From positions 1 through 20,000 of the forward strand of contig JAMYWO010000107.1 in the NCBI GenBank assembly GCA_024220525.1: 20,000 bases of DNA. The letters are read 5' to 3'. The stretch is from Cochliopodium minus. Lineage: Eukaryota > Discosea > Himatismenida > Cochliopodiidae. The notes under the pieces were generated by a model. The model did not search any database and was not told the DNA's origin. It saw only the letters and a program-made list of their open reading frames with translations. This document shows positions 3,023 to 20,000 of the stretch, piece by piece. Every line of letters starts with the position of its first letter. Position 1 is the first letter of the stretch. Both the position numbers and the translations under genes were made by a program.

Positions 3023-3235
3023 AAAAAAAAAAAATTCGATTTGATTTTGCTTTTGAAAAAAAATAATTTAATTTTGTCAGAACAAAGTTAATCTGTATTA
3101 CTAAAATAATAAAATTATTAAAGATACTTTTATTTACTCATTCATTGTGTGAAATTGGAAAATAAAAGTTGAAAGAAGAACAAAGAAGTGTTCGATAACT
3201 TTTACTCATTGAAAATTAATAAAAATAAAAAAAAA

Positions 3236-5099
3236 ATGATTCTTTCTCTCATTTTTATTATAGCGGCGATAATTAGGGTTTTATTATTCTCTTTTAAAGT
3301 TGATGATATGATTTTATGGCTTCCAGAATTATCAACCCAACTCACCAAATGGAAAGGATTGAGAGAATCATTATTTTTGAACGAGATTGGAGTTTCAATC
3401 TATAGTGGGAATTCTATCAAACAACCTCCTATTCTCTTATTTTTTTTCCAACAGATTGAAAATACTATACATTCATTGGGATGGGCAGAATATGAAACAT
3501 TGATTTATAATTTTCTTTTTATTCTATTTGATTTGTTGATTGCTTATTATTTATCTCAAATAGCCCATTCTTTTGTTGAGACTAAAGAATATAAAAAAGA
3601 TGAACAAAAAGAAATAAAAATCAATCTGCATTATATCCTCCCATTAGCATATTTATTCAATCCATGGTCTATTGCAAGTAAGGAAAAAAATATTAATTTT
3701 ACATTATGTTATAAACCAATGATATCATATCTTCTATTTTATGTTTTTATTGAAGAAAATGATCGATTAAAAGATCAAATATATTGATATAATATGATGA
3801 ATTAGATTGAATGAACAATATAAATGGATTTTATGTTGAGATATCAATATCTACAGATTATACTTAGTTTTTTTATTCACCGAATTTAGTTTGTTTGTCA
3901 AAATCGATGGCAATAGTGCATAATCTATTTATAATTCTCTCCTTCAAACATGCATTCAAAAATGTGATCCTCTCAGCATTCTTCATCTCCCTTTCTTCCT
4001 ATCTGACAATGTATCCAATCCTCTTGATAATCCCCCTCTATTATCTAATTCTCCAAAACAATGATAAAGATAACGATAATGAAAATGAAAATGAAAATGA
4101 AAATGAAAATGAAAATAAAAATATCAGTAATAATGATAATAATAATAATAATAATAATAATAAAGATAAAAAAGATAAAAAAGATAATAAAATAAATCAA
4201 CAATATAATTATATAGGCAGAGGAAGATTATTTTTAGTTTGGGTTGCTATTAGTATCAGTTTTTTTGTTTTTATCAGTTATGAGTTGATGGGAAGAAAGT
4301 GGGAATGGTTGTCTCAATATTACTCTCAGTTGATGATAGTGGATCTCACACCCAACATTGGTTTGTTTTGGTATTTTTTCACCGAGGTTTTCAAACACTT
4401 TTCCACTTTTTTTGCTTTTTGCTTTCAGTTCTATCCTTTCCTCTTTCTTTTTCCCCTTTCTATCCGACTCAGGTAAAAAAAAAAAAATCTTAATTAAAAA
4501 ATATTAAGTAATAAAAATAAAAAAAATTTAAAATAAATAAAAAATTTGAAATTTTAATTTTGAATTAAAAAATATAAAAAAAAAAAGAAAACTTTTTGTA
4601 AAAATTTTCAAAAAAAAAAATACTTAACACAAAATAAAAATATAAAAAGAAATAAAAATACATTTTCATAATATTTTATGAAAATATTTTAATTCTTTTA
4701 TTGTTCAATTCAGTTCAATATTAATTTTAATTCAAAAAAAAAAAAAAAAAAAACAGAAATCGACCTGCATTTTACTTCTGGGTGATGTTGGCAATCATGT
4801 CCACCTTCAAATCATATCCAACACTAGCAGATGTGCAAATAGAGCTTTCTTTGCTTCCACTTTTTTATTTTATTCTTAAAAAATCAAAGATAGGGTTTGT
4901 CCTCGTTAATTTTTTCATCACCATTTCTGTTTTGGCTCCCATCTTTTGGAAAATGTGGCTTTATGATGCTACTGGTAATGCCAATTTTCCTTTTGGCATC
5001 AACCTTGTTTTGGGTGGCACTCAAATTGCTCTCATCACTGATCTTTTGAACATTGTTTTAAAATCTGATTATCTTTCTAAACACAAAATAAATAAATAA
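3236..5099 (+). CDS. PIGU: GPI transamidase subunit PIG-U
   Basis: PIG-U is a multi-pass ER membrane subunit of the GPI transamidase, which attaches preassembled GPI anchors to protein C-termini. Exons 3236-3677, 3890-4472 and 4757-5099 (TAA) join in phase to give 455 residues, close to the roughly 435 usual for the family. Recognisable family segments are an N-terminal hydrophobic helix ending in a basic residue (IIAAIIRVLLF) and GVSIYSG. LFNPWSI, the signature DLTPNIGLFWYFF and TFKSYPTLADV follow. The start is the first ATG that gives the N-terminal membrane helix. A loop after about residue 205 carries a long Asn/Asp/Glu/Lys run (4071-4200, including repeated GAAAAT hexamers) that the human protein lacks. 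It sits between membrane segments, so it is probably a tolerated expansion. The peptidase gene starts about 146 bases downstream on the same strand. Confidence 0.97.
4078..4200 (+). repeat. In-frame GAAAAT/AAT codon repeats in PIG-U
   Basis: Tandem GAAAAT units encode alternating Glu-Asn (about 4079-4120). They are followed by AAT runs encoding poly-Asn and by GATAAAAAA units encoding Asp-Lys-Lys. The tract is in frame and falls in a loop between conserved blocks. It is a coding microsatellite likely to vary in length between strains. Confidence 0.9.
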
Positions 5100-5245: not shown

Positions 5246-6991
5246 ATGCAAATGAAATATATGAAATTACCTTTATATTTTGACAATCATTTTATTTCTC
5301 TCGAAAGTGTTGATGAGGTCAATTTCAATGTTTCTTTGCAAATATGATTTGATTTCTGACATTTATTAAAGGGTAAAAAAAAAATGAAAATTAAAATGAG
5401 TTGATGTTTTTATCAATCAAAGGTAAAAAAATATTGGGAAATAATGAAGATGTTTTCGTTTTGAACACTGATAAGATTGAAAGGAGTATGAGATTATTAA
5501 CCAACGATGAAATATCCATCCAAGAATTTACTAAATTCCAAAGCGAACAAGTTATACCTTGGGAAGAAGAAGATAAAATTCAATTATCCTCTATTATTAA
5601 GAAAATAAAGGTAAAAAAAAAAATTAAAAATTTTTTTATTTCATTCAAACTGGAACAATTTTAATTCAAAATAATTTTAAAACTGACAAAAAAGGTGAAG
5701 CTGGAAAGATTGAACCTAAGAAGTCTTCCCGAAACAGTGTACCTTGTTCTTACAGTAAATTTATCAAAAAAAAAAAATACAAAAAAAATTCAAAATTCAA
5801 AATATTTTAGACAGGAAAAGGTTGGGGTGATAAAATTTTAAATCGTGATTTATTTATTTTGTTCACTAGAGGAAGGAGGAGCTGCATATTGCAGAGGAAA
5901 AAAGTAAAATGTTTCAATTTTTTTAATTTTTTAATTTTTTTAATTTATTTTAAATTTTTAAAATTTTTTCAATTTAATTTTTTTAAAATTTTTAATTTTT
6001 TTAAATTTCTTTTTTAGTGGTATATTCTTTCCCAGAAATTTGGTAGAGTGGAAAGAAGAGAATGTAGATAAAATCAGTGATTTATTTTTACACGAACTGT
6101 TTCACATCATTTCGCGCAACTTGTCTCCTCTTTCCAAAAATCAAGTTTATTCTATTATTGGTATTCTTTTTCTTATAATTTATTATATCAAAAAAATAAT
6201 AAAAAAAAAAAATTTTGTAGGATATGAACCCATTGGAAAAAAAATGGAATTTCCATCTGAATTAAGTAAATAAATAATTAACTTTTTAAAATTTTTATAA
6301 TTTAAAATTTTTTTGCCTTAATCAGTTAAAATGACCAATCCCGTATTTTTTTATTTTCTCTTTTTTAATGCTTCAACACCTTTTTTTTTTAAAACAAGGA
6401 TGGTAAAATTATTTAATTTTTAGTAAACGAAAATTTAATAAAATTTTAATTAAAAAAAAAGCAATTTTTTGTGAGCACTATATTCGTGTAGAATTTACAA
6501 AAAATGAAGAACATTGCTTGGTGCCTGTCATGTGTGGAAAGAGTGAGAATTGTACGAGTGGATTCTTCAGAAACTGTTTTTTTTTTAATACCTTCATTTA
6601 TTTTACTTGTTTTTATTCTTTTTGATTTGTGTAGTGCAATTAGTGTTTATCCAGATTGAAAAAAACATAGAGGAAGATTGGGTCTATTCAAGAAAGAAAA
6701 AAGCTCTTGAAGATGTTTTCATGGTTGATGAGGAAGAAGATGATGAAGAAGAGCTTGTTATTTACTCTCCCAATCTCCCTCCTTCTTTTTGGGATAAAGT
6801 TGGAAAAAATACAACCTACATTCATGTAATCTTTTTTTTAATTTTGAGCTTTGATTGATTTTTTAATAACTTTAAAGCATCCGGAAGAGATTTTGGCCGA
6901 TAATTTCAGCTTCTTGACAGGATTTCAAATAAAAAAGATTTCCTCGGAAGATATAATCAATAAATTGAAGATATTCTTTGAATACAAATAA
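5246..6991 (+). CDS. Putative HExxH zinc metallopeptidase, bacterial-type family
   Basis: Exons 5423-5610, 5695-5754, 5811-5820, 5870-5903, 6018-6160, 6221-6265, 6326-6342, 6399-6402, 6462-6575, 6635-6825 and 6878-6991 (TAA) keep one frame. A first exon at 5246-5306 is likely, giving 326 residues. The alternative start is the ATG at 5404, giving 312. The spliced protein reads LPETVYLVLT, TGKEEGGAAYCRGKN, FFPRN, HELFH (the zinc-binding HExxH), GYEPI, TNPDA, EHYIRVEF and HPEEILADNF. The last motif fits the gluzincin pattern ExxxD, so one of its Glu residues is the probable third zinc ligand. From memory, this order of motifs matches an uncharacterised bacterial protein family. No signal peptide is evident, so it is probably cytosolic. 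An acidic insert (6731-6757) separates the two halves. Substrate is unknown. Confidence 0.82.
6399..6402 (+). other. Inferred 4-nt micro-exon (GATG)
   Basis: The exon ending at 6342 closes in phase 0 after TNP, while the exon at 6462 opens with two bases of a codon. A 4-nt exon GATG, flanked by acceptor acaag and donor gtaaaa, restores the frame and completes the conserved-looking motif TNPDA. It is inferred from phase and motif only. Confidence 0.65.
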
Positions 6992-7043: not shown

Positions 7044-7945
7044 TCATGTTTGTTGCATTTTGAACAATCGAGAAAAAAATTTTGAAAAATTTCTTTGGTT
7101 CTTAATAGATAAACTAGAATAAGAGGAAATGAGCAAAATTAATTGATTAAATAAAAAATTTTTGGATAATACCTTCCATGGTTCTCCATACATACCTTTA
7201 TTTAAAAATTGAATATGTGTTTAATTTAACTTTCCAATTAAAAAAGAAATTACCAGTTCTGTGTTCTTTGATTGCTCTGAAACAATCCCAAGATTTAGTT
7301 TCGAAAGCTCTACACATTTGACATATGGAACATGGTCCACAAAAAAGAATGCAAAGGATATCACCACACCAATTCATGCAATCATTTCCTCCTATTCCTA
7401 TTTGTCTTCTCAAATTATGACGAGTCCATACTGCTACACAAGGAAAACAAACACAAGCGGATACACAATGATTTATTACTTTACATTCTTGTTGAACTGA
7501 TTATTTTTATAAAAAGATTTATATATAAGACAATGAATTTAAGTGAGAGAATTTTTACCAGATGATGCAAATAACTTTGAAAATGAGCAAAGTCCTATTC
7601 ATCGTAAAATTTTAATTATTTGTGAAATTTCCTAAAAGAAAAAAGTAAGGTACCACAAACAGCCCAACAAGCACCTTTGTTATAAACAATTAATTAAGGA
7701 GATTTCAATAATATGATTAATACTTACAACAATACAATCCATCAATAACATTACATGGCAAACCGCAACAAGGTCTAAAAATTAAATAAAATGATATAAA
7801 CATTCTAATTAAAGACAAAAAAAATACGTTAAACGGTAGAACTCCCAACATTTTCCTCCATGTGATCCCCAATCCTAGAAAATTTGATTATTAAATTTTT
7901 GATTCATTTGAGATTTGAATAATTTACGTAATTAGTAAAGCTCAT
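7044..7945 (-). CDS. PLAC8-family cysteine-rich protein
   Basis: Reading on the minus strand, exons 7928-7945 (ATG), 7828-7874, 7728-7774, 7654-7674, 7559-7594, 7254-7496 and 7044-7195 (TGA) join in phase. The N-terminal part is rich in Cys (PCCGLPCNVIDG, ACWAVCG). The C-terminal half is a PLAC8 domain: CVCFPCVAVWTRHNLRRQIG, then DCMNWCGDILCILFCGPCSICQMCRAFE. Family members in plants and amoebae are membrane-associated and are linked to cell size or metal and calcium handling; the role here is unknown. Several exons are only 18-47 nt. The last exon is uncertain: without the final splice the frame stops at 7198. The 3' end converges on the peptidase gene with about 50 bases between stops. Confidence 0.83.
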
Positions 7946-8137: not shown

Positions 8138-10049
8138 ATGAAGGAAGTCCTTCTTTTATTCTTATTCTTTTTTATTGTTTTTCATACATCAATGACCATT
8201 CATGATGAATCGAATCAATTGATAGATTGGTCAAATTTGATTGAATCAAAAGAAATATTTGATTTATTTCACTTTTCATTTTTAGGTATAGAAAGAGAGG
8301 AGCTTATGTTTCCAATTCGATTCAAATAGCAGATTTTGAGGATTATGGGAGAGGGATTGTAAGTTAATTTTTAAAAAAACCTTATCGTTTTCAAATGATC
8401 AGATTTCTCTTAAAGTTGGCAACAAAAGAGATAAATGAAAATGAACTTATATTGTAAGAATACAAAATTGTTGTTTTAATCTTTTCAGAATTTGTGAAAG
8501 GAAAATAGAAAGTGATCCACTCCGTAATAAAAATTTTGCTTTTTTGTGTTTTATCAATTTTTTTAAATTCTTTTTTTTTTCTTTTCATTAAAATTACATA
8601 TAAAGAGATGATAACCACCTTTTATGAAAAAGAGAGCGAATTTGGAAAGAGGATAGTGAATTACTACGATGAAATTAAAGATTTGGAAGAATTTCTGATT
8701 TACCTCATCTACCTAAAAGAAGGAGGAGAAGGAGTGAAATGGGGAGAATACACAAAACATTTGCCAACACTGGAATCATTTGCGAGCATGCCAATCAATT
8801 GGGGAAAAGAAGAAAGGGAGGAATTAAAAAAATCTCCGCTATACGAAAAAATAGAGAAGGAGAGGAATTTTCTTTTTTCTCTTTCTTCTCGCCTTTCCTC
8901 TCTTTTTAAAGGAGATCCTCTCCTCTCTCTTTTGCCTCTCACTCCCTCCAACCTTTTTTGGTCTTATTCCATTTTCAAAAGCAGAATTTTCAGAATCAAA
9001 TATCGTGACTCCCTTTCCCGTTCCCTCATTGACGTTGGTACCCTATATCAAAAAAAATTAAAAATAAAAAAATAAAAAAAAAATTTACATTTTTAGAAAT
9101 AATATTCAAATATTTGTTTTGAAAAATTAGGAGCGTTGATACCTATTGCCGATTTTTTTAATTACAGATTAACACCTGAACAAGTCCATGCAGAAATGAG
9201 CAATGGAACTTTGTACATGACTTCCAAAATTAAAATAAAGAAAGGAGAACAAATCTTCGTATTAAAAAAAATATTTTAAATAATATATTAAATAATTTAT
9301 TTATTCTTTAAAAAAGGCATCCTACTCCTCCGTTTTTTTGAATAGCATGGACTCTCTTTTTAAGTATTGTTTTTTATTTTTTATTTTCATTTATTTTTTA
9401 TTTTTTATTTTATTGCTGTAAAGTTACGGGTTCATATCGAGTGAAAACGAGATTAGAAATAATTTGAGAGGAATTTACGAATGGAAAGAAGGAGCATCTA
9501 TTACAGCAGCAAAAGAGAAAGAAAATATTTTCAAAATTCTTTACAATTCTGTCCATTCTGATTCTAAAGAGAGACCCTTTGATCCCTCCAATGATTTATC
9601 TTTTCTTCTCTATTCTTCTCACATTTCCAATAAATTTTTGTTTATTTTTCGTGTCCTTTCTTTGGATAATTCTGAAATCTCTGACCCTTCTCTTTTTCAT
9701 TCTTTGGGTAATTTTTCTTTTTTGAATTTTGTTGATTGAAATTTAATGTAAAAAAAAAAACAAAGAAAACATCAAAAAAACTAAAAAATACAAAATTGGA
9801 CAAATTTCTTTGAGAAATGAAAGAGAAGCTTTGAGAAAGATGAAACTCTTTGTTGAAAAATGGTTGGGAAGTTATCCAACCAAAATAGAAGAAGACAAAA
9901 AGAAATTAGAATCAATTCACTCTTCCCCATCCACTTTGTCTCTTTTGAAAAAAAAGCTGGCTCTCACTCAATTAATTTATGAAAAATCTATTCTCAAATC
10001 AACTAGCAAGCTTCTCGAAAAAGAAAGAATCAAACTCTCCAAAAAATAA
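8138..10049 (+). CDS. SET-domain lysine/histidine methyltransferase, SETD3/LSMT type
   Basis: Nine exons (8138-8229, 8286-8358, 8416-8453, 8489-8523, 8606-9037, 9131-9258, 9317-9363, 9424-9707 and 9766-10049, TAA) give 470 residues. The fold order matches SETD3/SETD6/Rubisco-LSMT enzymes, which methylate protein side chains with S-adenosylmethionine. It shows LIDWYRKRGAYV, then YGRGILATKEINENELIL, an inserted helical region, and ALIPIADFFNYR near residue 230. KKGEQIF, ASYS and NYGFI follow, then a C-terminal Rubisco-substrate-binding-like helical domain (YPTKIEEDKKKL, EKSILKST). Two oddities stand out. The usual Asn-His pair after the Asp is Asn-Tyr here. Residues 3-18 (VLLLFLFFFIVF) look like a signal peptide or membrane anchor. 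Intron 8454-8488 is only 35 nt. The 3' end faces anamorsin with 50 bases between them. Target protein is unknown. Confidence 0.92.
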
Positions 10050-14446: not shown

Positions 14447-17400
14447 TTAGAGTTGGGAGAAATCATCCTCATGTTCTTGCCAAAAAGACTCTACTACTTC
14501 TGATAAAGAAAGTTCAATTTCAATTAACAAATTGGTGAAAAGATCGTGTGGAATATCAGAAACATGCGAAACTTTGGCACTTGAATAAAATATAGAAAGA
14601 TCATTCTTGAAATTTGATTTCAATCTCAATCCCATTTCACTCCCTTCCTACAAAAATGAAGTATTAATAATAAAATTCACATTAAAAAAGAAAAGAAGTG
14701 ATGAATACTTTGATATAAGTTTTGAACAAACGAATGGAATGTTTCAATTTTTTGGTTGGGTTGACTTCACAAAGCATATCGTAAGCTTCGGACCAAAAAA
14801 GAAAGTTGTTTTTGTAACCTTTTTCGGTTAAAAAAGTGAGGAAAAGTTCCTTTAAGTTTTTTTCTTCATCCAACTTTGCCAAGATAAGATGTGTATTTTT
14901 TGAGCTTTGTTTTATTGGAATGAATGAGTCAAATTTGTTTGTTTTCTTGAGCAACGAAAATTGTTTGATTCTTTTTTCCTTTTAAAAATTTTTTGTCAGA
15001 ATATTTTTTGATAAATAAATGATTAAATAAATAAAAAATATTTAAATAAAAATAAAAAGAAAAATAAAAGAAAAATAAATAAAGAATAAATAAGAAATAA
15101 ATAAAAATAAATAAAAAATATTTAAATAAAAAAGAAAAATAAAAGAAAAATAAAAAGGGGAAAGGAAAGAGAGGGGCTAACATTTGCTTCTTTGAGGAGA
15201 CGTTGTTTTTGTTTTTGAGTAAGAGTGAAGAATTGAAGAACAAGAGGTTGAAGAGTGGTTTCAACTTGATTTTGAGCAACATCAAAAAGTTTCATTTCCA
15301 AAAATATCTTTTTATTTGTAATCATGTTGTACAACTCTCTTTGTAGTTCACTTGACAAACAAATTGGTTCTGGTGAATCATATGCAAGAAATCTTCTAAA
15401 GTATACTTGTGCTATTCAAAAAAAAAAAATCAAAAAACATATTTAAATAACCTCAAAATAAAATTAAAATTAAAATTAAAATTTAATAATATCAAAATAA
15501 AATAAAATAAAAATTATTTAATAATCTCAATTAAATTGAATTAAATGAGTATAAAAAATCAAAATAATAATAATAGAAGGAGTAAATGAAAAGAAAGGGG
15601 ATGTATTAATAAGTATATGAAAAGAAAGGGAATGTATTAAATAATGTTAATAAGTATGAAAAGAAAGGGGATGTATTAAATAATGTTAATATAAGTATAT
15701 GAAAAGAAAGGGGTATGTTAATAAGTATATGAAAAGAAAGGATATTTTAATAAGTATATGAAAAGAAAGGAGTTGTATTAAATAATGTTAATATAAGTAT
15801 ATGAAAAGAAAGGGGTATGTTAATAAGTATATGAAAAGAAAGGGAAGTGAAAAAGAAAACCTTTTTCACGACGTTTGGATTCATAACTTTCGGCACGTAA
15901 ATCTTCAATTGCTTTCCAACAAAGGAGATTTTCGACACAGTATTTGGTGGCCAAGAAAGATTCAAATTGGTTATAAGTGTTTTTGTTGTTTACGATTCTC
16001 ACCAATTGTGCATGTACTCCTTCTGGTAAACTTTCTGATGAAGGTCTTGGTTTTCTTTTTCTTGTATCTGTAGACTTATCCTTTGCAACTATTTTGAAAA
16101 AATATTAAATTTATTAAATTTATTATTAAATATAAATCATTTAATTCAAACCAAATTTTTGTGGTCTTTGAGTTTATTTATCATTATTGAAGAATTGATT
16201 ATAATGTTGGAGGAATTAATGTTATAGGGAATTAAATTTATTGAAAGGGATTAGATATCTTCTCAATAAAGAAATTCCGGATGTATAAATATAAATAATT
16301 ATATTGAGGTAAATTAAGTATATATATCAAATAATATAAGAGATGGTTGTATAAATGAGTGATTATATTGAGGAAAGTTTTTACTTCTGATGAAATCAAA
16401 AGTGTGCATGTGGAGATCTTTGGAGAGTTCAGAACGGGTTTGTGTGATGATTTTGATGATTTGTTGGACAGAGGGTTTTTTTTGTACTTCAACAATTTCT
16501 CTCCAGGCTTCTTGAAGCTCAAAACCAACAGCTATTTGATGCATAGCTCCTTCTTTCAAATAATCATTGAAATAACCCAACAAAATGTCGATTTGTTGTT
16601 CCAAAGTGTATTCTTCAAAGTATTTGATGAAATGCTCTATTCTCAACCACAAAGATAAGGTATCATCGCAAAACAAATTTTCTAAAAACAATCTAAATCT
16701 CAACAAAAGCTCTTCATCTTTCAAGATGTATTGCAATTGCTCTGGCAACTAAAAAAGATTGAATTAGTTTTTTAAAAGAAAGTGTCAATCAATTAAATTG
16801 TAAATGTTCTAAATCTAATTAATTATTTGAAGAATATTCTCTTACTGTTTCCTTTATTTCGAATTTTAAATTATGATCTCTCAAAACTCCAATGAAATCG
16901 CTGGGTGTATTTGTTGTAATGATCTTTTCTAGTTTCTTTTTTTCAATGTCCACATCAGTATAATACTTGGAGGAAATGAATTTCGATTTGACGCTAAAAA
17001 GTAAAATAAATTAATCATCCTTCAAAAAAAAGAAAATATTGAAAAAAAATTAAATTACCTCGCAAGTTTATTTGTCACAATAGGAGTGATTTGCTCAAAT
17101 AAAGAATTATCTATTTTGATGAATATCAGTTCAAATTTCTTGAAGAGATCACTTGGAATTCGCACTATTTATTTAAAGGGGAATTAATTGAAGAAAAAAA
17201 ATTAATATTGATTAATAATTAATAAATAAAATAATTATAAAATAATAAATTTTGAAAGGAGGAAGAAAAAAAGTTTATTTTGAGGGGAATAATTTTAAAT
17301 TTCTTTATTCTTACCTTTATTTGGAGCATTTTGAGTGATGAATTTTTCATAAATTTCTCTTGCTTTTCTCGTTTTTTGTTTCCCAATTTCGATCAATAAA

Positions 17401-17966
17401 TATTCCTCTATATCTTGAAATAGAAGAAGATAATTTTCATAACTCGCTCCTTCAACCTCTCCAGATCTAAGAAATTCACAAAAAGAATTGAATTGTTCAT
17501 CAATGATTTTTTTTAGAGGGATATTATTATTCAGATTTTCAGGTATTTTTTGATTGGCTGTATTTGTGGTAGAGTTATTGGTGGAGATTTTAGAAAGAGA
17601 ATTATCATCGGATTCATTTTCATTTGTTCCATTTGGAGGTTTATTATGTATTAATTCTCTTCTTATATCGACTGAATTGTTCTTTTTGGATGAAGAATTC
17701 CTTATTTTAGAAAAACCTATTTCAGATGATATTTTCTTGTCCATTTCAGTGTCATCCTGCGATGAACTTTCAATGTGTGATAATTTATTATTATTATAGG
17801 GGATTTTTAAGGAAGGTATTTCGTCCAATGAGATAATCTTGTGCTTGATTCCAAATACAAGAAATTTTTTGATAAAAGAAGGATCTTTTTCTTCTAACAA
17901 CAATATAAATTCTTCTTTAATCTGTTGTTCAAGATCAATCATATCTATTGTATTTTCTTCCATCAT
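14447..17966 (-). CDS. Protein with four tandem RGS domains
   Basis: RGS domains speed GTP hydrolysis on G-alpha subunits and so end G-protein signals. On the minus strand, exons 17315-17966 (ATG), 17059-17164, 16846-16993, 16385-16748, 15861-16088, 15182-15411, 14709-14978 and 14447-14647 (TAA) add up to 732 residues in one frame. An N-terminal region with a Ser/Asn-rich linker (to about 150) precedes four RGS units. RGS1 (150-265) has FNSFCEFL, then RKAREIYEKFI. RGS2 (303-424) has LLRFRLFLENLFCDDTLSLW. RGS3 (445-575) has FESFLATKYCVENLLCWKAI, then MKLFDVAQNQV. RGS4 (600-720) has LFLTFLTEKGYKNNFLFWSE. RGS3 best fits the canonical pattern; RGS4 is the most diverged. No membrane helix, DEP or GGL domain is seen. 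It is divergent to the C2-SH3 gene. Confidence 0.92.
15025..15156. repeat. A/T-rich direct duplication in RGS intron
   Basis: A block of about 50 bases of AAATAAATAAAAAATATT type followed by AAAAGAAAAATAAAAG occurs at about 15025-15079. It recurs at about 15105-15155, roughly 80 bases later with small length changes. It lies inside the intron 14979-15181 of the 4xRGS gene (T-rich on the sense strand). Confidence 0.7.
15587..15847. repeat. Minisatellite in RGS intron, eight copies
   Basis: The core TGAAAAGAAAGG, usually preceded by AAGTATA, recurs at 15587, 15618, 15657, 15700, 15730, 15759, 15802 and 15832. Spacing alternates between about 30 and about 40 bases. The long form carries an extra ATTAAATAATGTTAAT. 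The array sits within intron 15412-15860 (449 nt, the longest here) of the 4xRGS gene and reaches almost to its 5' splice site. On the sense strand it is a repeated pyrimidine-rich CCTTTCTTTTCA. The copies are imperfect and the spacers are related, so it is not a CRISPR array. Confidence 0.93.
16089..16384 (-). other. Intron of the 4xRGS gene
   Basis: This 296-nt AT-rich intron lies between the exons encoding RGS2 and RGS3 (phase 1). It holds no repeat array and no coding potential that I can support. Confidence 0.65.
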
Positions 17967-18271
17967 CCTTAATTGGTCCTATTTTTTTTTTTTTTTTTTA
18001 AAAAATAATTTTACTGATTTTAAATATTTTTTTAAAATCTTCAATTTTTTTTTTTTTGAAGAGGGATTATTTAAAGATCCTATGTTTGATTGCGAATTAC
18101 TAAAGAGAAGATGAAAGAATTTTTAAGGATAAATTAAAAATATCGCAAAAATTCCATTCAAATTATAAAATTTCTTTTTTAAATCAAACGACCAAATTTT
18201 CTGTTCACAGTTTTCAATAAAATAAAAAAAAAATATTAGTGATTCAAAAATTCCAAAAATAATTATTACGA
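17967..18271. promoter_or_regulatory. Divergent intergenic region, 4xRGS / C2-SH3
   Basis: Start codons of the 4xRGS gene (minus) and the UBL-C2-SH3 gene (plus) lie 305 bases apart. The gap has homopolymer T tracts at about 17980-17999 and 18048-18056 and A tracts near 18222. Such tracts are common in promoters of AT-rich genomes because they exclude nucleosomes. No specific factor site was identified. Confidence 0.55.
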
Positions 18272-20000
18272 ATGGATACTTCCTTGAGATTATCCAGTAC
18301 ATTTCCTCTGGAAATACAGGGACTTATGAGAATAAACATCAATGTTTTTGATTCTTCACAAATGACTCTTGTGGTTTCAAAAGAAGATATATGCCATATA
18401 ATTTTGAAGAAAGCTTGCTCTAAATTAGGATTCGAAACAGATCTATATAATTTAAGTAATCCAAATGGAGAGATAATTGATTTAAAATTATCTATTTCAT
18501 CAATTACCTTTCCATATTTGTTATTGCTTCCAAATGATATGGATGAAGAGCAAAAAAATGAAATTACAAAATTAGATGGAAATCAGATTCCCATCAAAAA
18601 GGAAAGTACAACAAAATCAAAGAAAAAGGTTCCTCCAAGATTATTGAAAGATAAATCTATCGGAAAGATGGGGGTCTTTCAAAAAATACAGGTAGATGAG
18701 AATTCTACAAAAGTATTGGAATCAAGAAAGAAAAGTTTTTCTCTCAGTATGGGTTTCATGGGAAATTCTAAAATTGAAAAGAAGGGAAATGGATGGCTAA
18801 ATGTAAAGATTTCACAAGCAAGAGGATTAATATGTGCAACATCCTTTGATATCAATGCATTTGCCGAGATTTTTCTTTATGATCAAGTTTTCTATACATC
18901 TGCAAAAAGGGGGAACAATCCATCTTGGGAACAAAATTTCTTATTGTAAAAAAAAAAATTTTATATATCAACATATAAAATTTTATTTAAATTTCTTAAA
19001 AAGGAAAACATATTTTCCCTGGAGGAATGTAGATATCAAGATATATCATCAATTTGCAAGCCAAGTAAAGACATTGCTGGGATCAACAAATATAACTTTA
19101 GAAATGTGCGGAAATTCAAGAGAAAATGTGGAGCATTGGCTTCCCATCACAAATTATATGGACGAAGATTGTGGAGAATTGTTGATTTCTTACAAATGGG
19201 AAGAAATGGAATTTAAAATTCAAGAAGATCCCGAAAAAATGGAAGATTTAGAAAAAATTGTTGATTGGATTTGTTCAATGCCCATTGCCAACAATAATGA
19301 GGATTCCCAATTTGATAATGAAAGTGAAAGTGATAGTGAAAATGAAGAAAAAGAAAAGAAAACCGAAGGAGATCAAGATGAAGAAGATGATGAAGATGAT
19401 AGCTCTTCTTCAATTGGATGGAATTTGGATGAAAGTGATGAGATAGAAATCAAGAAAAAAGAAAAACCAAAAACTTCAATACAGAAACAAACATCCTTTC
19501 CCAAATTTGAAATAGTGGAGGCGATTGCTGATTTTGATGGTGAAGGCCAAAATTTTTTAACTTTCAAAAAAGGTGAATTTATCGAATTAATCAAAAAAGG
19601 AAAGAAATGGAACAAGGGTTGCCTTTATAATACTTCCAAATTTGGATGGTAACATCTCAAAAAAATTTAATTTTAAAATTTCATTTCAAAATTTTACAAA
19701 AAATAGGTATCCTCCCACTTTTACACAACCCCTCCAGAAATCCGAAGATCTATTGAAATATAAACAAAAATCCATTCCCACTTCTTATCAATCAGGAAAT
19801 AATTTTGATTCAAACAATTATAACAGTTTTGAAATTAACAATAATTCTTATCAACCAAAAAATGAAAATCATAATTATGAACCAAATATACCTCACAATC
19901 TTTACAATAATTCTTATCAACCCCCTTCTTCTTATTCATCAAATATAACATCTTATTCTTCCGTTCCTCCATCAATAGGAAAATCTACTTATGACAATCA
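18272..20000 (+). CDS. UBL-C2-SH3 scaffold-like protein, 3' end outside the window
   Basis: Exons 18272-18945 (ATG), 19004-19648 and 19707 to the window edge join in phase; about 537 residues are visible. The N-terminal 90 residues look like a ubiquitin-like/Ras-binding-type fold (MRININVFDSSQMTLVV). A basic linker follows. Next is a C2-type domain (173-293: GWLNVKISQARGLI, then NPSWEQNFLL, and GELLISYKW), followed by a long acidic Asp/Glu/Ser stretch. An SH3 domain (388-447: EAIADFDGEGQNFLTFKKGE, then GWYPPTF) comes next. The last visible part is Asn/Tyr/Ser/Pro-rich with NNSYQP repeated. The C2 loop has FAE where Ca-binding C2 domains have an Asp-Pro, so calcium binding is unlikely. SH3 domains bind proline-rich peptides. 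The role is probably a membrane-linked adaptor, which is inference. Confidence 0.85.

What the first reader, a model, noticed from the sequence alone, without database searches (positions are those of the whole stretch)
5246..6991. Intron-rich eukaryotic gene for an uncharacterised HExxH peptidase family of bacterial type
After splicing, the protein shows an ordered motif set: TGKEEGGAAYCRG, HELFH, TNPDA, HYIRV and HPEEILADNF. I associate this set with an uncharacterised bacterial family. HELFH plus EEILAD fits a gluzincin zinc site. A bacterial-looking enzyme cut by about eleven exons suggests an old transfer followed by intron gain, or an overlooked eukaryotic branch. The family link is from memory; the motifs are seen in sequence.
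Basis: partly seen in the sequence, partly recalled or inferred. Interest (0 to 1): 0.78.

Follow-up and report, generated by a model that had tools for sequence, protein, structure and literature searches.

The report
Intron-rich protist gene, bacterial-type metallopeptidase
A single-celled eukaryote carries, cut into at least eleven exons (one of only four bases), a gene for an unnamed zinc-peptidase-like protein whose relatives found here are all bacterial and nearly all carry an export signal; the eukaryotic copy lacks that signal but keeps every residue that never varies in the bacterial ones.

Summary
Eleven exons joined by ten GT-AG introns (5404-6991, +) give a 312-residue protein that matches a profile made only from 73 bacterial proteins at 247-253 bits. 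It keeps all 23 residues invariant in them, including HExxH and the glutamate of HPEEILADNF. A 4-base exon (6399-6402) codes most of the Asp-Ala of TNPDA; the best splice model without it scores 21 bits less. It is the only match found in a 44.65-Mb genome and lies beside PIG-U, CIAPIN1 and RGS genes.

The family has no Pfam or NCBIfam entry of its own and no solved structure found by sequence. A bacterial member folds confidently (pLDDT 97); its best structural matches are M1 aminopeptidases and anthrax lethal factor, at middling Z (7.5 at most). Hydrophobic leaders occur in 72 of 73 bacterial relatives, in none of four 5' models here. Best reading: an intracellular zinc peptidase derived from an exported bacterial one.

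The trees nest the gene among bacteria on a very long branch, but a place outside them is not rejected (p = 0.20), so transfer is inferred. Other eukaryotes could not be searched. The 5' end, with a possible 1-base exon, is unresolved; activity and zinc are untested.

The parts
5246..5317 (+). possible first coding exon (open frame, MQMKYMKLPLYFDNHFISLESVDE)
   Evidence: inference from homology: models that use it gain 1.3-5.3 bits over a start at 5404 (256.2 and 252.2 against 250.9); not decisive
5372..5372 (+). possible 1-nt exon between introns 5318-5371 and 5373-5422
   Evidence: restores SVDEGKKILG in line with bacterial SVEQGRKILG; best of 671 open 5' models, by 3.9 bits over the best one without a 1-nt exon; tentative
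5404..5610 (+). exon 1 of the 312-aa model (ATG 5404); in the 1-nt-exon model this exon begins at 5423
   Evidence: matched and, by a bacterial protein,
5695..5754 (+). exon 2
   Evidence: next best acceptor 7.6 bits lower
5811..5820 (+). exon 3, 10 nt (TGK of TGKEEGGAAYCRG)
   Evidence: best of 2837 open models; a 16-nt version scores 7.6 bits less
5870..5903 (+). exon 4, 34 nt (EEGGAAYCRG)
6018..6160 (+). exon 5, HELFH zinc-site helix (His129, Glu130, His133)
6221..6265 (+). exon 6, 45 nt
6326..6342 (+). exon 7, 17 nt (ends in TNP)
6399..6402 (+). exon 8, 4 nt (Asp codon and first base of the Ala codon of TNPDA)
   Evidence: best of 2794 open models among 106676 GT-AG paths; best model without it 21.2 bits lower; the Asp is invariant in 73 of 73 bacterial sequences
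6462..6575 (+). exon 9 (HYIRV)
6635..6825 (+). exon 10; holds an acidic insert (about VDEEEDDEEEL) not in the bacterial profile; two models with an extra intron here (6682-6732 or 6715-6753) score 9.9 and 8.4 bits higher because they drop the insert
6878..6991 (+). exon 11, HPEEILADNF (candidate third ligand Glu279) and stop
   Evidence: matched by a bacterial protein

Best explanation
A nuclear gene of a protist encodes a single-domain zinc metallopeptidase of gluzincin type, belonging to an unnamed family otherwise found here only in bacteria. SHOWN: the exon structure by homology, homology over almost the whole protein, retention of all 23 invariant residues, a hydrophobic leader in nearly all bacterial members and in none of four 5' models of this gene. 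INFERRED: two histidines of HELFH and Glu279 of HPEEILADNF hold the zinc, Glu130 activates water to cut a peptide bond, the invariant TGxEE...YxR stretch before the HExxH helix lines the substrate groove, and, lacking a leader and the candidate cysteine pair, the eukaryotic enzyme works inside the cell whereas the bacterial ones are exported. The most likely history is an old transfer from bacteria followed by intron gain.
For: Exons and introns; 246.9-252.6 bits to a bacteria-only HMM; exhaustive splice-model comparison; 23 of 23 fully invariant and 40 of 47 at least 90% conserved residues kept; highest identity 38% over 292 columns; bacterial model pLDDT 97.2, pTM 0.93 with HELFH in helix 121-138 and Glu266 (= query Glu279) in helix 264-276; the structural rows listed are dominated by M1 aminopeptidases and anthrax lethal factor; leader-like hydrophobic stretch in 72 of 73 bacterial members against 6 of 73 control core segments, query maxima 0.63-1.06 against a threshold of 1.7; Cys156 in 54 and Cys181 in 35 of 73, both in 34, neither in the query; eukaryotic neighbours PIG-U, CIAPIN1, RGS; query nested among bacteria in rooted trees.
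Against: Foldseek found no PDB match at E <= 0.001 and no aligned chain reached Z 8, a range the tool says may mean only a common arrangement. Some listed rows are not peptidase domains (8s5f, an HExxH oxygenase; rows covering the N-terminal region of lethal factor, as I recall its layout). The fold is of a bacterial relative, not of this protein. Outside-bacteria placement is not rejected, p 0.201, and the query branch (2.0-2.3) is long and of odd composition. No transcript was seen; a signal-peptide exon further upstream cannot be fully excluded, though only about 150 nt separate the PIG-U stop from 5246. The leader test took the furthest upstream start codon of each bacterial ORF.
Confidence: 0.7

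Rival explanations
1. An overlooked eukaryotic branch: the gene was inherited within eukaryotes from an early ancestor (or an organelle) and is not a lineage-specific transfer.
For: Very long query branch, no resolved donor; AU test does not reject a place outside all 51 thinned bacterial sequences, p 0.201; many introns.
Against: Best trees nest the query inside the bacterial set when rooted on a sister family (log-likelihood 15.4 better). No other eukaryote could be searched, so this is weakly tested.
Confidence: 0.25
2. The protein is a catalytically dead or non-peptidase relative (for example a binding protein or another HExxH enzyme).
For: HExxH domains also occur in non-peptidases (an HExxH oxygenase, 8s5f, is among the structural rows); weak Foldseek scores.
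Against: All 23 invariant residues are kept, including His, Glu, His and the downstream Glu.
Confidence: 0.15
3. Bacterial contamination or misassembly, or a decaying copy rather than a working eukaryotic gene.
For: None beyond the bacterial affinity.
Against: Ten GT-AG introns in an open 312-codon frame, 26% GC like its surroundings, eukaryotic genes on both sides on the same contig, strong constraint on invariant residues.
Confidence: 0.02

Closest known systems
Unnamed bacterial family (L004-L083 here; e.g. L004 Verrucomicrobia MAG, L079 Deltaproteobacteria MAG, L025 Vibrio sp.)
   Same: Homology over nearly the whole protein; all 23 invariant residues; same motif order.
   Different: Bacterial members are intronless and 72 of 73 have a hydrophobic leader; the query has none in four 5' models, lacks Cys156/Cys181 and has an acidic insert.
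Sister bacterial family with HPNE in place of HPEE (L085, L090-L093)
   Same: Shares the HTRG, NPD and HPNE-type motif order; 46-73 bits to the same HMM.
   Different: Far more distant, several with an altered HExxH (seen); used as outgroup.
M1 aminopeptidases and anthrax lethal factor (M34), gluzincins
   Same: HExxH helix plus a downstream Glu helix; best structural rows, Z 6-7.5, 135-173 residues aligned. Family codes are recalled.
   Different: No sequence match; Z under 8; N-terminal part and the TGxEE/NPD motifs are its own.
PF13699 eCIS_core, PF18958 DUF5700, SprT-like
   Same: Short stretch around HExxH; eCIS_core reached E <= 0.1 in 61 of 73 bacterial members, best 1.2e-7.
   Different: In the members shown eCIS_core covers about 40 residues only, just above its cut-off in two of ten; the query itself matches no Pfam family at E <= 1.

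Membership tests
Unnamed bacterial HELFH/HPEEILADNF family | Full-length match to a profile made without the query | tested here: met
   246.9-252.6 bits over about 285-295 of 328 positions
Unnamed bacterial HELFH/HPEEILADNF family | Residues invariant across the family | tested here: met
   23 of 23; 40 of 47 at >= 90%
Unnamed bacterial HELFH/HPEEILADNF family | Hydrophobic export leader (common, not defining: one of 73 bacterial members also lacks it) | tested here: not met
   four 5' models tested
Gluzincin clan | HExxH zinc motif | tested here: met
   HELFH at 129-133; H, E, H invariant in 73 bacterial members
Gluzincin clan | Downstream Glu as third ligand, on a helix | tested here: inconclusive
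   Glu279 (bacterial Glu266) invariant and in helix 264-276 of the bacterial model; distance to the histidines not measured
Gluzincin clan | Thermolysin-like catalytic fold | tested here: inconclusive
   Rows dominated by M1 and lethal factor but Z 7.5 at most and no Foldseek E <= 0.001
Gluzincin clan | Bound zinc and peptidase activity | not testable with these tools
   needs protein
PF13699 eCIS_core | Score over the curated cut-off for the query | tested here: not met
   query: 0 Pfam families at E <= 1
Gene transferred from bacteria to this eukaryote | Supported position inside the bacterial family | tested here: inconclusive
   nested, alternative not rejected

The most novel reading that the evidence does not exclude
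This is the first seen member of a eukaryotic, intracellular branch of an unrecognised gluzincin family whose bacterial members are secreted; the gene is built largely of tiny exons (10, 34, 45, 17, 4 and perhaps 1 nt), so that gene finders will miss it and its relatives in other protists.
Probability: 0.35. Interest if true: 0.65.

Novelty: new variant of a known kind. Interest (0 to 1): 0.5.

Why it matters
It joins an enzyme family without an entry in Pfam or NCBIfam to a eukaryote, with a profile that can be used at once to look for more; it suggests a change from exported to intracellular use; and it offers a homology-backed test case for 4-nt (and possibly 1-nt) exons, which standard annotation overlooks. 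Single-nucleotide exons are already reported, e.g. in Arabidopsis (PMC4674806, abstract and introduction seen), so the small exons are unusual rather than unheard of.

Tried and rejected
First searches with the query alone found nothing: Pfam and NCBIfam at E <= 1, PDB sequences (best E 0.24), genome contigs with patterns from unconserved stretches (15 stretches, 0 relatives), plasmids and phages at E <= 0.01. A bait alignment then steered the patterns: 0 of 110 stretches in viral contigs, 136 of 187 in genome contigs, best 80 kept. The bacterial alignment found 0 of 29 stretches in viral contigs.

Bacterial neighbours gave no clue: 77 same-strand adjacent ORFs (of those within 450 nt) scanned, commonest family DUF1846 in 5 of 77. 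PDB profile search with 73 bacterial rows: best E 0.15, unrelated.

A donor was sought and not found: the query joins L008 (88/88) where the program warns that long branches meet, and elsewhere when L008 is left out.

Anaeramoeba was considered as the organism and dropped: only one gene matches the iron-hydrogenase family, which may be Nar1 (recalled). The actin L096 is nearest to PDB entry 4efh, then 1nlv, which I recall as amoebal actins; the species is not established. Introns of PIG-U, judged by eye, are about 190 and 280 nt, so intron size alone does not support the small-exon model.

Papers: no hit for the motif strings or for gluzincin + uncharacterized + Planctomycetes; five papers for Amoebozoa + lateral gene transfer + metallopeptidase + bacterial origin, listing only. 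The library is partial, so this does not show that the family is unpublished.

Full report
What is there. The window (26% GC) is the first 20 kb of contig C107 of a 44.65-Mb assembly in 598 contigs. Splicing eleven exons between 5404 and 6991 gives an open 312-codon frame with ten GT-AG introns of 49-114 nt. The query protein finds no second copy in the assembly at E <= 0.1, nor does a bacterial relative at E <= 1; the tool warns that weak matches can be missed.

Relatives. No Pfam, NCBIfam or PDB sequence entry matches the query, and plasmids and phages held none at E <= 0.01. A scan of one genome per bacterial and archaeal species, steered by a bait alignment, gave 136 relatives among 187 stretches; the best 80 were kept, all annotated as bacterial, mostly metagenome bins. 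Of these, 73 remain below 85% identity: by record title 37 Planctomycetota, 15 Pseudomonadota, 8 Verrucomicrobiota, 3 Myxococcota, 2 Thermodesulfobacteriota, three single phyla and 5 without a label. The selection favours sequences near the query and with the two patterns. Sampling whole phyla shows patchiness: 2 of 145 genomes in the phylum of L004 (one the centre itself, one a remote partial match), 8 of 149 in that of L005 (four strong including the centre, four remote), 1 of 299 in that of L025 and 1 of 148 in that of L079 (the centre alone in both).

Strength of the link. A profile from the 73 bacterial sequences scores the spliced query at 246.9-252.6 bits, and the query keeps 23 of 23 invariant and 40 of 47 nearly invariant residues. 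The seven changes are and none touches HExxH or the HPEE glutamates.

Exon model tested. Every GT-AG path with introns of 35-320 nt was built for one region at a time, the rest held fixed, and scored with the bacterial profile. For 6018-6575 (up to four introns), 106,676 paths gave 2,794 open proteins; the model with the 4-nt exon is first at 250.9 bits, the second (234.7) also has it, and the best without it has 229.7. For 5695-6160 the 10-nt exon model is first of 2,837, 7.6 bits ahead. For 6462-6991 two models with one more intron score higher (260.8, 259.3 against 250.9), because they drop part of an acidic insert; whether that is intron or coding is open. At the 5' end the best of 671 models uses 5246-5317, a 1-nt exon at 5372 and 5423 onward (256.2), against 252.3 for the best model without a 1-nt exon and 250.9 for a start at 5404: suggestive, not decisive, and a 1-nt exon needs more evidence than 4 bits.

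Structure and mechanism. AlphaFold2 on the closest bacterial member with 73 sequences gives pLDDT 97.2 and pTM 0.93; HELFH lies in helix 121-138 and Glu266, the equivalent of Glu279, in helix 264-276. Foldseek finds nothing at E <= 0.001; the first row is the abylysin zymogen at E 0.29. VIA-align puts anthrax lethal factor (Z 7.5) and M1 aminopeptidases (about 6-7.4) on top, with none of 996 chains at Z 8 or more. I read this as gluzincin-like with moderate confidence: zinc held by two histidines and Glu279, water activated by Glu130. That the invariant TGxEE and R before the HExxH helix line the substrate groove is inference. No distance was measured.

Location. A leader-like hydrophobic stretch precedes the core in 72 of 73 bacterial members, against 6 of 73 random core segments of like length; four 5' models of the query reach at most 1.06 against the threshold of 1.7. 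Cys156 and Cys181 occur together in 34 of 73 bacterial members, Cys156 alone in 20, Cys181 alone in 1, and neither is in the query. Both fit a move from outside the bacterial cytoplasm to inside the eukaryotic cell; a disulfide between them is a guess.

History. Without an outgroup the query has the longest branch (2.19) and no supported partner. Rooted on the HPNE sister family, it falls inside the bacterial set beside L008, where long branches meet (88/88, bootstrap not settled), and inside a 41-row group (SH-aLRT 94) when L008 is left out. Holding all 51 bacterial rows together against the query costs 15.4 log-likelihood units but is not rejected (p-AU 0.201). Transfer from bacteria is therefore the likelier reading, not a demonstrated one, and no donor can be named.

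Surroundings. PIG-U lies just upstream on the same strand (three ORFs, 78.9, 135.7 and 89.2 bits), CIAPIN1 and an RGS domain downstream on the other strand, which with the introns excludes a bacterial contig.

Verdict. Confirmed as a real, constrained, intron-rich eukaryotic gene of an unnamed bacterial-type gluzincin-like family; mechanism and history inferred.

Noticed in passing
15122-17978, - strand: Four ORF pieces match the RGS domain (16314-16748 over the cut-off; 15122-15415, 15820-16104 and 17295-17978 just below it), which suggests one gene or a cluster with several RGS domains.
   Followed up: partly
3173-5099, + strand: PIG-U gene whose middle ORF holds an Asn-Glu run and Asn/Lys-Asp repeats (about 4066-4190) absent from the family model's own spacing.
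   Followed up: no
18263-19652, + strand: ORFs with a weak C2 match (below cut-off) and an SH3 domain over the cut-off, perhaps one C2-SH3 protein.
   Followed up: partly
8509-10049, + strand: Looks to me like a SET-domain protein from recall, but two of its ORFs gave no Pfam match at E <= 0.05.
   Followed up: partly
L085, L090-L093: A remote sister family in Verrucomicrobiota and Planctomycetota genomes with HPNE for HPEE and, in several, an altered HExxH, so possibly other chemistry.
   Followed up: partly
7198-7500, - strand: Cysteine-rich ORF with a PLAC8 match below the cut-off.
   Followed up: no
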